A DNA stretch of 64,000 nucleotides from Hymenobacter psychrophilus (GTDB taxonomy: Bacteria; Bacteroidota; Bacteroidia; Cytophagales; Hymenobacteraceae): contig NZ_FNOV01000001.1 of NCBI RefSeq assembly GCF_900107135.1, forward strand, positions 62,001 to 126,000, in the 5' to 3' direction. The translations under genes and the position numbers were made by a program. Under the pieces are notes generated by a model. It was not told where the DNA came from, did not search any database, and worked only from the letters and a program-made list of their open reading frames with translations. Position 1 is the stretch's first letter, and the number at the start of each line of letters is the position of its first letter. Of this stretch, positions 48,197 to 50,360 are shown piece after piece.

Positions 48197-48931
48197 GTGA
48201 CTGACTCAACCACTACTCCGCTGCCCACCCGTCCCGATTTACTGCGCATCGCCTACGATGACTACCGGGCCCTGCCTGCTATTGCCAACTCCGACCTCTC
48301 GCGCCTGCGCGACGCGCTTAACGGCCGTCCGCCGCGGCCCCACACCAGCGTCGGCGGCGCCCTGGGCCTGGGCACGGCCTTCCACACGGCCCTACTCGAA
48401 CCCGACCTTTACGAGGCTGGCCAGCCCGGCATCAACGACACGCTCATCTGGTGGATGGTGGAGGGCGTGCAGCTCGACCCCGAAGTGAAGGCGCTGCTCG
48501 ATGTGGGCACGCCCGAGCCGAGCTGCATTTTCACCGAACCCGTGACCGGCACGCTCTGCAAGCTGCGCGCCGATCTGGTCGTCGACCACCCCGGCCACCC
48601 CTATACCGTCGTGGATTTCAAGACCACCATGGCCCGCGACTACAACCACTTCGTGGAGCAGTGCACCTACTACGACTACGACCGGCAGGCCGCGTTTTAT
48701 GCCGATGCGCTGCAGGCCGACCGGTTTCTGCTGATTGGGGTGCAGAAAACGGAGCCCTTCAAGGTTTTCGTGTATGCCGTACCGCCGCTCATGCGCTCGG
48801 AAGGCCGGGCCAAGTACCTGCGCCTGCTGCACCTGCTGCACCCCGAGGCCCCCGTGCCGCTGTCGGTGCTGCCAGCCGTGCGCGATGTGCGCCACGCCCT
48901 GAGCGGTGGCGCCGACGAGGAACCCGCGTAG
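48197..48931 (+). CDS. RecE-like PD-(D/E)XK nuclease
   Basis: 244 residues from GTG 48197; no better in-frame ATG is seen. The layout matches the C-terminal nuclease of RecE/exonuclease VIII-type proteins. It has LSRLRDAL near the start, a conserved His in LGLGTAFHTALLEP, the active-site acidic residues in CKLRADLVVDH and VVDFKTT (D-x-K), then QCTYYDYDRQAAFYADAL with the family's Q..FY helix. Such enzymes degrade duplex DNA 5' to 3' and usually sit beside a RecT annealing protein in prophages. Here neither RecT nor any phage gene is nearby, and the base composition looks like its neighbours, so it may be domesticated. Its role is unknown. Confidence 0.82.
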   Translation: MTDSTTTPLPTRPDLLRIAYDDYRALPAIANSDLSRLRDALNGRPPRPHTSVGGALGLGTAFHTALLEPDLYEAGQPGINDTLIWWMVEGVQLDPEVKALLDVGTPEPSCIFTEPVTGTLCKLRADLVVDHPGHPYTVVDFKTTMARDYNHFVEQCTYYDYDRQAAFYADALQADRFLLIGVQKTEPFKVFVYAVPPLMRSEGRAKYLRLLHLLHPEAPVPLSVLPAVRDVRHALSGGADEEPA

Positions 48932-48973: not shown

Positions 48974-49004
48974 TTGCGTATTTACCAGTAGCTTGTTATA
49001 CTTG
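48974..49004 (+). promoter_or_regulatory. Promoter of the asnA leader transcript
   Basis: TTG (48974-48976), 20 bases, then TATACTTG (48997-49004), seven of eight matches to TAnnTTTG. The spacing is the same as in the tRNA-Lys promoter. Transcription would start near 49011, about 23 bases before the leader peptide ATG. Confidence 0.6.
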
Positions 49005-49033
49005 TGAGCACTTCAATAAACGGTAAAATTCCG

Positions 49034-49123
49034 ATGCGTCATTTCCGCAATAACCGCCAGAATAATAACTCGAATAATAATATTATTCGGGACTGGAAGG
49101 CTATTGCACCCTGGGAAAAATAA
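49034..49123 (+). CDS. Asn-rich 29-residue leader peptide of asnA
   Basis: ATG 49034 to TAA 49121-49123. Eight of 29 residues are Asn: positions 6, 7, 10, 11, 12, 14, 15 and 16 (codons 49049-49081). The peptide begins MRHFRNNRQ and ends WKAIAPWEK. It lies between a promoter and an intrinsic terminator, 215 bases before the asparagine synthetase gene. This is the arrangement of amino-acid-biosynthesis leader peptides (trpL, hisL and so on), in which scarcity of the charged tRNA stalls the ribosome and prevents termination. Codons 22-24 and 27-30 overlap the RNA segments that can sequester the terminator arm. A role as a functional peptide product is less likely. Confidence 0.75.
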   Translation: MRHFRNNRQNNNSNNNIIRDWKAIAPWEK

Positions 49124-49154
49124 AGATCAATAATTGATTTTTTCCAAGCCTTCC
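49095..49154 (+). promoter_or_regulatory. Predicted antiterminator structure of the asnA attenuator
   Basis: Two helices stack on one continuous 3' strand. GGAAGGCT (49095-49102) pairs with 49147-49154 (8 bp). TGGGAAAAAT (49112-49121) pairs with ATTTTTTCCA (49137-49146; 10 bp, one G-U). Together they occupy the whole 5' arm of the terminator (49146-49154), so the two folds are mutually exclusive. A ribosome at the stop codon would cover 49112-49121; one stalled on the Asn codons would not. Confidence 0.65.
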
Positions 49155-49174
49155 TCTTCGGAAGGCTTTTTTTT
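49146..49174 (+). terminator. Attenuator terminator between leader peptide and asnA
   Basis: AAGCCTTCC (49146-49154) pairs with GGAAGGCTT (49160-49168), loop TCTTC, followed by an uninterrupted T8 tract (49167-49174). It lies 164 bases before asnA in the same direction, with no other gene end nearby except the leader peptide. Confidence 0.9.
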
Positions 49175-49260
49175 GTGCCTTTGCCGCCCATTTGGTCCCG
49201 TAGCGAGTGGTTGGTAAGCGGGGTAGTTTTAATTATTAGCGCTGAAAAAACAAAAAAAAA

Positions 49261-49274
49261 GCTCCGGTTGGAGC
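49261..49274. repeat. Small hairpin preceded by A9 in the asnA leader
   Basis: GCTCC-GGTT-GGAGC right after a run of nine A. It lies downstream of the attenuator and about 65 bases before the asnA start. On the minus strand it would read as a weak terminator. Its role is unknown. Confidence 0.4.
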
Positions 49275-49337
49275 AGGGGAACTCGTGTGCCCTTACGAAA
49301 ATAAAAACCTCTCAGAAACCATTTAAAAAACAGCCCC

Positions 49338-50360
49338 ATGATGACCGCCGAAATGATTACCACCGATTTACTCGAAACCGAAGAGGCAATTAGCCTGGTG
49401 AAGAGTGTATTTGCCCGCGAACTGGCCCGCCGCCTGCGCCTGAGCTGTGTTTCGGCCCCCATTGCCGTGCTCGACGGGACCGGCATCAACGACGACCTGA
49501 ACGGGGTGGAGCGGCCGGTGACCTTCCCGGTAAAAGCGCTGGCCGAGCAGCGGGCCGTGGTAGTACACTCGCTGGCCAAGTGGAAGCGGCTGCGGCTGCG
49601 CGAGCTGGGCATTGCCGCCGGCCGGGGCCTGCTCACCGATATGCGCGCCCTGCGCCCCGATGAGGACTACTCGCCCATCCATTCCATCTACGTCGATCAG
49701 TGGGACTGGGAGCAGCACATAGCGGCCGAGCAGCGCACACCGGAATTCCTGCGCGCCACCGTGGAGCAGATTTATGAGGCGCTGCGGGCCACTGAGGTCG
49801 AAGTAGCCGCCCGGTACCCCGATATCGTGCCGGTGCTGCCCGGCCGCATCACCTTTCTGCACGCCGAAGACCTGCTGCGCCAGTACCCCGATCTTACACC
49901 CAAAGAGCGCGAGCACGAGGCCACCCGGCAGTACGGCGCGGTGTTCCTGATGGGCATTGGCGGCGCCCTGAGCCACGGCGAGGCCCACGATGGCCGCGCC
50001 CCCGACTACGACGACTGGAGCACCGAAACTGCCCCCGGCTACCAGGGCCTCAACGGCGACCTGCTGGTTTGGCATCCGGTGCTGCAAACGGCCCTCGAAT
50101 TATCGTCGATGGGTATTCGGGTGGATAAGCTGGCGCTGCGGCGGCAGCTGGCGCTGCGCGGCTGCGAGCAGCGCCAGGCGCTGGAGTTTCATGGCCGGCT
50201 GCTGCGGGGCGAGCTGCCCGAGAGTATTGGTGGTGGTATCGGGCAGAGCCGCGTGTGCATGTTTATGCTCCGTAAGGCCCACATTGGGGAGGTGCAGGTG
50301 AGCATCTGGCCCGAGGAAACGCGCCGGGAACTGGCCGATAGGGGCATCATGCTGCTGTAG
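49338..50360 (+). CDS. asnA: Aspartate-ammonia ligase (asparagine synthetase A)
   Basis: 340 residues versus about 330 in E. coli. AsnA makes asparagine from aspartate, ammonia and ATP and is related to class II aminoacyl-tRNA synthetases. Strongly conserved stretches: VVHSLAKWKRLRL, MRALRPDEDYSPIHSIYVDQWDWE, RAPDYDDWSTETAPGYQGLNGDLLVWHPVL, ELSSMGIRVDK and ESIGGGIGQSRVCMFML (the ATP-binding motif 3 region). ATG 49338 is chosen; a second ATG follows immediately at 49341. Upstream is an apparent leader-peptide attenuator rich in Asn codons, so expression is probably controlled by charged tRNA-Asn. A terminator follows the gene. Confidence 0.97.
   Translation: MMTAEMITTDLLETEEAISLVKSVFARELARRLRLSCVSAPIAVLDGTGINDDLNGVERPVTFPVKALAEQRAVVVHSLAKWKRLRLRELGIAAGRGLLTDMRALRPDEDYSPIHSIYVDQWDWEQHIAAEQRTPEFLRATVEQIYEALRATEVEVAARYPDIVPVLPGRITFLHAEDLLRQYPDLTPKEREHEATRQYGAVFLMGIGGALSHGEAHDGRAPDYDDWSTETAPGYQGLNGDLLVWHPVLQTALELSSMGIRVDKLALRRQLALRGCEQRQALEFHGRLLRGELPESIGGGIGQSRVCMFMLRKAHIGEVQVSIWPEETRRELADRGIMLL

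What the first reader, a model, noticed from the sequence alone, without database searches (positions are those of the whole stretch)
48974..49340. Asparagine-codon leader peptide and attenuator in front of asnA
Seen directly: a TTG-N20-TATACTTG promoter; a 29-codon frame with eight Asn codons clustered at positions 6-16; a 9-bp terminator hairpin with T8; then asnA. The terminator 5' arm (49146-49154) can instead pair with 49095-49102 plus 49112-49121 to form an 18-bp antiterminator. The stop codon (49121) sits inside the antiterminator strand, so a ribosome finishing the peptide would favour termination and one stalled at Asn codons would favour read-through. Known: this logic operates in trp, his, leu and thr operons of Proteobacteria, and asnA is under a T-box in some Firmicutes. 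I do not know of an Asn leader-peptide attenuator in Bacteroidota, so it may be undescribed.
Basis: partly seen in the sequence, partly recalled or inferred. Interest (0 to 1): 0.93.

Follow-up and report, generated by a model that had tools for sequence, protein, structure and literature searches.

The report
Asparagine-sensing attenuator in front of asnA
Just before asnA, a gene for making asparagine, Hymenobacter and some other Bacteroidota carry a tiny reading frame packed with asparagine codons followed by a terminator-like hairpin, and this stretch is predicted to let the gene be transcribed only when a ribosome stalls for lack of asparagine.

Summary
In detail: promoter-like TTG-N20-TATACTTG, a 29-codon frame with eight Asn codons, a 9-bp terminator-like hairpin with T8, then asnA. 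It is no accident: all 58 asnA loci of two Hymenobacteraceae genera carry an Asn-rich leader; a strict script finds leader plus terminator in 56 of 58 and in 0 of 5608 control windows. The antiterminator strand is kept even where it lies in another reading frame (11 of 58). The last Asn codon lies 15-16 nt before it in 51 of 58. The claimed 10-bp extension is poorly conserved. Asn leaders also precede asnA in the family of Myroides (8 of 23 loci, four with two modules in series), in Vaginella, and in GC-rich letters in a distant order (3 of 3). Best reading: a trp-like, ribosome-mediated attenuator sensing Asn-tRNA; expression is untested. Ten paper searches showed no Asn leader. A new member of a known kind.

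The parts
48974..49004 (+). Bacteroidota-type promoter-like site: TTG (48974-48976), 20 nt, TATACTTG (48997-49004)
   Evidence: TATACTTG lies within 60 nt upstream of the leader ATG in 34 of 58 relatives, the other 24 lack that exact string; consensus recalled, function inferred
49034..49123 (+). leader ORF, MRHFRNNRQNNNSNNNIIRDWKAIAPWEK, ATG to TAA
   Evidence: Asn-rich leader ORF in 58 of 58 related loci
49049..49081 (+). Asn codon cluster: codons 6-7 (49049-49054), 10-12 (49061-49069), 14-16 (49073-49081)
   Evidence: 5-11 Asn per peptide, 345 AAT and 108 AAC over 58 leaders
49047..49060 (+). region 1, 5' strand of the protector helix (GCAATAACCGCCAG)
49071..49089 (+). small hairpin made largely of the Asn codons themselves (CGAATAATAATATTATTCG)
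   Evidence: the two outer pairs form in 50 and 58 of 58 in this alignment, inner pairs shift between clades
49093..49107 (+). region 2: pairs with region 1 (protector) or, by its core 49095-49102, with region 3 (antiterminator)
   Evidence: in another reading frame in 11 of 58
49126..49138 (+). local hairpin between regions 2 and 3 (ATCAATAATTGAT), variable
   Evidence: 206 of 275 cells pair
49146..49154 (+). region 3: terminator 5' arm, alternative partner of region 2
49160..49174 (+). region 4: terminator 3' arm (49160-49168) and T8 tract (49167-49174)
49338..50360 (+). asnA, aspartate-ammonia ligase (AsnA), the presumed target
   Evidence: PF03590 E 4.8e-97; only PF03590 match in its genome

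Best explanation
The stretch 48974-49174 in front of asnA holds a conserved Asn-rich leader ORF and mutually exclusive RNA pairings, and it likely works as a ribosome-mediated transcription attenuator that senses charged tRNA-Asn. Shown from sequence: leader ORF with clustered Asn codons; region 1 can pair with region 2 (protector), region 2 with region 3 (antiterminator), region 3 with region 4 (terminator-like hairpin plus T8); the last Asn codon lies 16 nt before the core of region 2. Inferred: transcription starts just after TATACTTG; when Asn-tRNA is plentiful the ribosome runs on into region 2, region 3 pairs with region 4 and RNA polymerase stops near 49174; when Asn-tRNA is short the ribosome waits at an Asn codon, keeps region 1 from region 2 but leaves region 2 free, 2:3 forms before region 4 is made, and asnA is transcribed. 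With no ribosome on the leader, 1:2 would form first and leave 3:4 free to terminate.
For: All 58 asnA loci of genera g1 (50) and g6 (8) have the leader; strict leader+terminator script 56 of 58 against 0 of 5608 control windows. Protector: 83.3% of cells paired, 40 cells with changes on both sides, covariation score reached by 0 of 500 shuffles and by none of six slid versions. Antiterminator core 98.9% paired; its duplex beats at least 190 of 200 dinucleotide shuffles of the spacer in 53 of 56. Region 2 is conserved in a second reading frame in 11 of 58. Last Asn codon to region 2 is 15-16 nt in 51 of 58; modelled stalling leaves 2:3 above 0.5 in 57 of 58, the exception being L047; 1:2 is above 0.5 before region 3 emerges in 54 of 58. 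The same logic with other letters occurs in the families of Myroides and Vaginella and in a GC-rich order. The genome has its own asnS, so free Asn would feed tRNA-Asn charging.
Against: No expression data. Two of five covariation measures of the protector are unexceptional: pairs with a change on both sides (46 of 500 shuffles reach it) and further pair types (245 of 500). Regions 2-4 are nearly invariant, so the 2:3 core shows almost no covariation (score reached by 30 of 500). At equilibrium a transcript ending at region 3 prefers 2:3 even without a ribosome in 39 of 58, and a full transcript prefers the terminator even with a stalled ribosome in 48 of 58, so the mechanism must rest on the order of folding. 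The leader is missing before asnA in 9 of 9 loci of two other genera of the family and in most asnA loci that I read elsewhere in the phylum. The stop codon's distance varies widely; in L023 the frame runs through the terminator. Two orphan leaders persist without asnA. An asnB-like gene exists in the genome without an Asn leader.
Confidence: 0.87

Rival explanations
1. The hairpin is a terminator governed by something other than a ribosome stalled at Asn codons (a metabolite-binding RNA, a T-box or an RNA-binding protein), and the Asn codons are a by-product of an AT-rich structural element.
For: The Asn codons can form a hairpin of their own, and the protector is conserved RNA structure.
Against: No Rfam family reaches its gathering score on the leaders given, so no known T-box or riboswitch. 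Asn codons vary between AAT and AAC (345 and 108) and stay in frame. The distant GC-rich design keeps Asn codons with different RNA letters.
Confidence: 0.06
2. The leader transcript is an independent small RNA or small protein ending at 49174, and asnA has its own promoter in the 163 nt between terminator and gene.
For: Two genomes keep the leader without asnA at the same syntenic place, with fewer Asn codons but the hairpins kept; the terminator ends 134-170 nt before asnA in the 58 relatives.
Against: On the + strand no TAnnTTTG, TAnnnTTG or TAnnTTG string lies between 49005 and 49337; the peptide tail changes frame, so a conserved protein is unlikely; in all 58 asnA-bearing genomes of g1/g6 the leader sits before asnA.
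Confidence: 0.05
3. Coincidence of a low-complexity AAT run with an unrelated terminator of the upstream gene.
For: AAT runs are common in AT-rich intergenic DNA (general knowledge); the upstream ORF ends at 48931, within 250 nt.
Against: 0 of 5608 control windows have both features, 7 have an Asn-rich ORF alone; conservation over 58 genomes and across families.
Confidence: 0.01

Closest known systems
Ribosome-mediated leader-peptide attenuators of trp, his, leu, thr, ilv, phe operons (classical set recalled; Actinobacterial trp, ilv, leuS and cys candidates in passages of PMC1262725)
   Same: Leader ORF with repeated codons for the product amino acid, protector 1:2, antiterminator 2:3, terminator 3:4, biosynthetic gene downstream
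   Different: Amino acid is asparagine and the target is asnA; I saw no Asn example in the papers searched
Bacteroid-trp RNA (RF01692)
   Same: Listed as a cis-regulatory motif of Bacteroidetes (PMC2864571, table passage)
   Different: 0 matches in 140 genomes of this family, G000 among them (strict filters), none at the window; the Asn leader is a separate element
Phe_leader (RF01859)
   Same: Weak hit 49115-49174, 25.3 bits, E 0.31, on the terminator part
   Different: Far below its gathering score of 55; codons are Asn, not Phe
T-box in front of asnA in Firmicutes
   Same: asnA controlled by charging of tRNA-Asn
   Different: A T-box binds tRNA directly; no T-box match here
Tandem attenuators of Salmonella mgtCBR (PMC3641672, abstract and outline seen)
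   Same: Two short ORFs with attenuators in one leader
   Different: There the two sense different signals (ATP, proline); in four loci here both ORFs are Asn-rich

Membership tests
ribosome-mediated transcription attenuator (trp/his type) | short ORF with a cluster of codons for the amino acid made by the downstream gene | tested here: met
   58 of 58 loci in g1/g6; translation itself not shown
ribosome-mediated transcription attenuator (trp/his type) | intrinsic terminator between leader ORF and first gene | tested here: met
   terminator stem in the alignment of 58; window 49146-49174; termination itself not shown
ribosome-mediated transcription attenuator (trp/his type) | antiterminator that excludes the terminator | tested here: met
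   2:3 core 98.9% of cells; 53 of 56 beat at least 190 of 200 shuffles, exceptions L010, L016, L047
ribosome-mediated transcription attenuator (trp/his type) | protector helix 1:2 overlapping the control codons | tested here: met
   covariation; above 0.5 in 54 of 58 before region 3 emerges
ribosome-mediated transcription attenuator (trp/his type) | stalled ribosome frees region 2 | tested here: met
   in silico only: last Asn codon 15-16 nt before region 2 in 51 of 58; 2:3 above 0.5 in 57 of 58 in a simple masking model
ribosome-mediated transcription attenuator (trp/his type) | ribosome at the stop codon blocks region 2 | tested here: inconclusive
   the masking model gives zero by construction; stop lies 15-107 nt after region 2 start
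ribosome-mediated transcription attenuator (trp/his type) | expression rises when the charged tRNA is limiting | not testable with these tools
   needs expression data
T-box leader | T-box covariance model match | tested here: not met
   no T-box
Bacteroid-trp (RF01692) | covariance model match | tested here: not met
   0 of 140 genomes, none at the window

The most novel reading that the evidence does not exclude
A phylum-wide family of asparagine-sensing leader-peptide attenuators controls asnA in Bacteroidota: at least one old Asn leader in the AsnA lineage shared by Hymenobacter and flavobacteria and a separately built GC-rich version in a distant order, with some flavobacteria running two Asn attenuators in series to read the same amino acid twice before the gene is allowed on.
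Probability: 0.58. Interest if true: 0.72.

Novelty: new member of a known kind. Interest (0 to 1): 0.62.

Why it matters
If true, it adds asparagine to the amino acids read by leader-peptide attenuation and puts this control in a phylum where I found little about it in print. The element is compact and easy to test. The natural comparisons are already laid out: two reading frames over one RNA strand, two letter designs with one geometry, single against tandem modules, and orphan leaders after loss of asnA.

Tried and rejected
RNAalifold on the whole alignment returned the terminator and two weak 3-bp helices that use region 2; it cannot show mutually exclusive folds and missed the protector, which I then tested as a named structure. 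The 2:3 core cannot be supported by covariation because it hardly varies.

Rfam 'evalue' hits over the leader (STnc100, TeloSII_ncR40, Phe_leader) are far under their gathering scores and were set aside. The covariance model R1 found no hit above 47 bits outside the family in 390 genomes of the order; of the weak hits five loci were read (L101-L105): one looks like an ilv leader (L101), the others seemed chance. Asn leaders were looked for before asnB and asnS of this genome: none. Five leader peptides match nothing in NCBIfam or Pfam at E up to 1.

Failed or flawed counts: one search placed asnA by tblastn and missed 23 loci, so one search used the coordinates. mis-set the last Asn codon in L010 and L016 (an Asn inside region 2's own codons), which lowers their score; L047 fails there on its own merits. 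mis-set it for L132 and printed for L200 a start that was only my search anchor, not a start codon; the in-frame ATG of L200 lies further upstream. One search misses L023, L046 and L278 by its threshold of six Asn in 14 codons, and took a wrong hairpin for L277. In the tree (a quick one on 97 of 181 AsnA proteins) the genome of L046 appears as L194 and is labelled 'none' although it has a weaker leader, and row L168 has an unsound long branch. Second modules of L235 and L239 have no supported antiterminator.

Full report
What is there. The window segment 48974-49340 was read directly. A TTG (48974) and TATACTTG (48997) are 20 nt apart. An ATG at 49034 opens a 29-codon frame, MRHFRNNRQNNNSNNNIIRDWKAIAPWEK, ending in TAA at 49121-49123; an in-frame GTG at 49004 would give 39 codons, but in the relatives I took the ATG as start. 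Eight of 29 codons are Asn. A 9-bp hairpin with a 5-nt loop and T8 follows at 49146-49174, then asnA at 49338-50360, Pfam PF03590 with E 4.8e-97, the only PF03590 match of its genome. The genome also has an asnB-like gene and asnS; neither has an Asn-rich short ORF in the stretch read in front of it. A sigma-70-type scan finds one promoter-like match at 49002-49029, no more than chance.

Conservation. A search of 204 genomes of the family gave 67 with AsnA. I took the upstream DNA of all 67. All 50 of genus g1 (G000 among them) and all 8 of genus g6 have a short Asn-rich ORF some 300 to 190 nt before asnA; the 9 of genera g2 and g5 have none. Names come from equal contig lengths: G063 is Hymenobacter pini BT728 and G035 Hymenobacter frigidus (g1), G200 Solirubrum puertoriconensis and G201 Hymenobacter sp. 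CRA2 (g6). A strict script (six or more Asn in 14 codons plus a terminator of at least seven pairs) finds both features in 56 of these 58 (misses L023 and L046) and in 0 of 5608 control windows, which overlap by half and include duplicated loci; 7 control windows have the Asn-rich ORF alone.

The folds. The 58 leaders were aligned. Terminator stem: nine pairs, at worst 55 of 58 paired. Antiterminator core, 49095-49102 with 49147-49154: 98.9% of 464 cells, but almost invariant, so hardly any covariation. Protector, 49047-49060 with 49093-49107: 83.3% of 748 cells paired, 40 cells with changes on both sides (0 of 500 shuffles), covariation score 0.283 against 0.192 for shuffles (0 of 500 reach it) and at most 0.127 for slid versions; two other measures are unexceptional (pairs with a double change 46 of 500, further pair types 245 of 500). 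The outermost pair is G-C, G-U, A-U or C-G in 57 of 58.

RNA, not peptide, is kept at region 2. In 47 leaders the GGAAGGCT-like strand sits in one frame, giving peptides such as RDWKAIAP; in 11 it sits in another frame, giving peptides such as FRDGRLLV. Asn codons, by contrast, stay in frame and vary between AAT and AAC (345 and 108). AAT makes 76% of leader Asn codons but 15 of 72 in eight ORFs of the window; whether this matters is unknown.

Geometry. The first base of the last Asn codon lies 15 or 16 nt before region 2 in 51 of 58 (range 12-19). A ribosome with that codon in its A site reaches about 13 nt further (recalled), so region 2 would be just free. In a simple model that hides everything up to the ribosome's leading edge, 2:3 stays above 0.5 at every Asn codon in 57 of 58 (exception L047). 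Without a ribosome, 1:2 is above 0.5 in 54 of 58 before region 3 is made. Against a simple reading: once region 3 is made, 2:3 is favoured at equilibrium without any ribosome in 39 of 58, the window's own leader included, and with region 4 made the terminator is favoured even with a stalled ribosome in 48 of 58. The mechanism therefore has to rest on the order of folding. My masking gives zero 2:3 for a ribosome at the stop codon by construction, so that step is not tested.

Beyond the family. One search kept the best 80 of at least 591 AsnA loci; of these, apart from Hymenobacteraceae (L106-L110), Myroides sp. N17-2 (L132) and Vaginella massiliensis (L156) have Asn leaders with terminators. 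In 299 genomes of the Myroides family, 23 have AsnA; 8 of these loci have an Asn leader with terminator (L209, the Myroides locus again, and L233-L239), two were too short to read. In 246 genomes of the Vaginella family 18 have AsnA and one, Vaginella itself, passes the script. In f23, 33 of 201 genomes have AsnA; 30 loci were read, with no strict hit; one (L112/L197) has a weak candidate, MSNIYNSLLNYPCNLAGS. In the order of G812, 3 of 114 genomes have AsnA, and all three have Asn-rich leaders with region 2 complementary to the terminator's 5' arm in GC-rich letters (the script alone passes two of three, one with a wrong hairpin); two of the three terminators have short T runs. In 15 modules outside Hymenobacteraceae set up by hand, region 2 starts 8-18 nt after the last Asn codon, and 2:3 beats at least 289 of 300 shuffles in 11 of 15. 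The four exceptions are the second modules of L235 and L239, L237, and L132, the last from a mis-set codon; L237 beat 192 and L132 193 of 200.

Tandem modules. L234, L235, L236 and L239 have two Asn-rich ORFs, each followed by a terminator-like hairpin, in series before asnA. In L234 and L236 both modules have a supported antiterminator; in L235 and L239 only the first.

Origin. A quick tree of 97 of 181 AsnA proteins puts 15 of the 19 leader-bearing rows in one 31-row group that also holds 16 rows labelled without a leader; the f55 pair lies apart, and L235 and L239 fall beside an unsound long-branch root. The label needs at least 7 changes (4 forced by well-supported branches) against 17.6 in shuffles. 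This suggests a shared leader in the lineage of Hymenobacter and flavobacteria and a separate one in f55, but does not prove it.

Orphans. A covariance model of the leader searched over 390 genomes of the order gave 25 genomes above 100 bits, all in this family. Two of them, G122 and G060, are not among the 67 genomes with AsnA: the leader stands alone at what looks like the same place, with fewer Asn codons (MRLFCNNIPSNNSTNNLVRARKAIAPSE and MRLFSNNISMNNSANNLAWAWKAVAPLEK) and the hairpins kept by eye.

Known work. Ten paper searches showed no Asn leader attenuator; the library lacks most subscription journals and all preprints. Passages seen: PMC2864571 (Bacteroid-trp in a table), PMC9723704 (leader-peptide attenuation clues in Flavobacterium psychrophilum), PMC7366714 (short ORFs in B. 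thetaiotaomicron leaders), PMC8632094 (a Cys example before cysS), PMC1262725 (trp, ilv, leuS, cys in Actinobacteria), PMC2965389 (premature terminators; asparagine not mentioned). PMC3641672 was seen as abstract and outline. Rfam shows no family at gathering score on the leaders of 13 loci (one tRNA elsewhere).

Verdict. The anatomy of a classical four-segment attenuator is shown by conservation; that it answers to asparagine is inferred.

Noticed in passing
L099 1501-1653 (G122:C47:93807-93959) and L100 1501-1657 (G060:C9:33211-33367): Asn leader and terminator kept without asnA in two genomes of the window's genus, with fewer Asn codons but paired hairpins; perhaps a relic, perhaps a small RNA with a new use.
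   Followed up: partly
L234, L235, L236, L239, upstream of asnA: Two Asn-rich leader ORFs, each with a terminator-like hairpin, in series before asnA.
   Followed up: partly
L101 1501-1628 (G460:C28:371675-371802): A leader MKQVINIQTIITIVIESQ with terminator GCCTTCC/GGAAGGC before an ORF that reads like ilvD: looks like an Ile/Val attenuator in the same order; gene name from reading the translation, not from a family search.
   Followed up: no
L023 1185-1339: Leader ORF without the usual stop codons that reads through the terminator, 56 codons long.
   Followed up: no
window 48197-48931: Gene before the leader encodes a PD-(D/E)XK-like protein (DUF3799, PF12684); by eye the same kind of gene precedes both orphan leaders.
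   Followed up: no
leaders L002-L059: Asn codons in leaders are 76% AAT while eight ORFs of the window use AAT for 15 of 72 Asn.
   Followed up: partly
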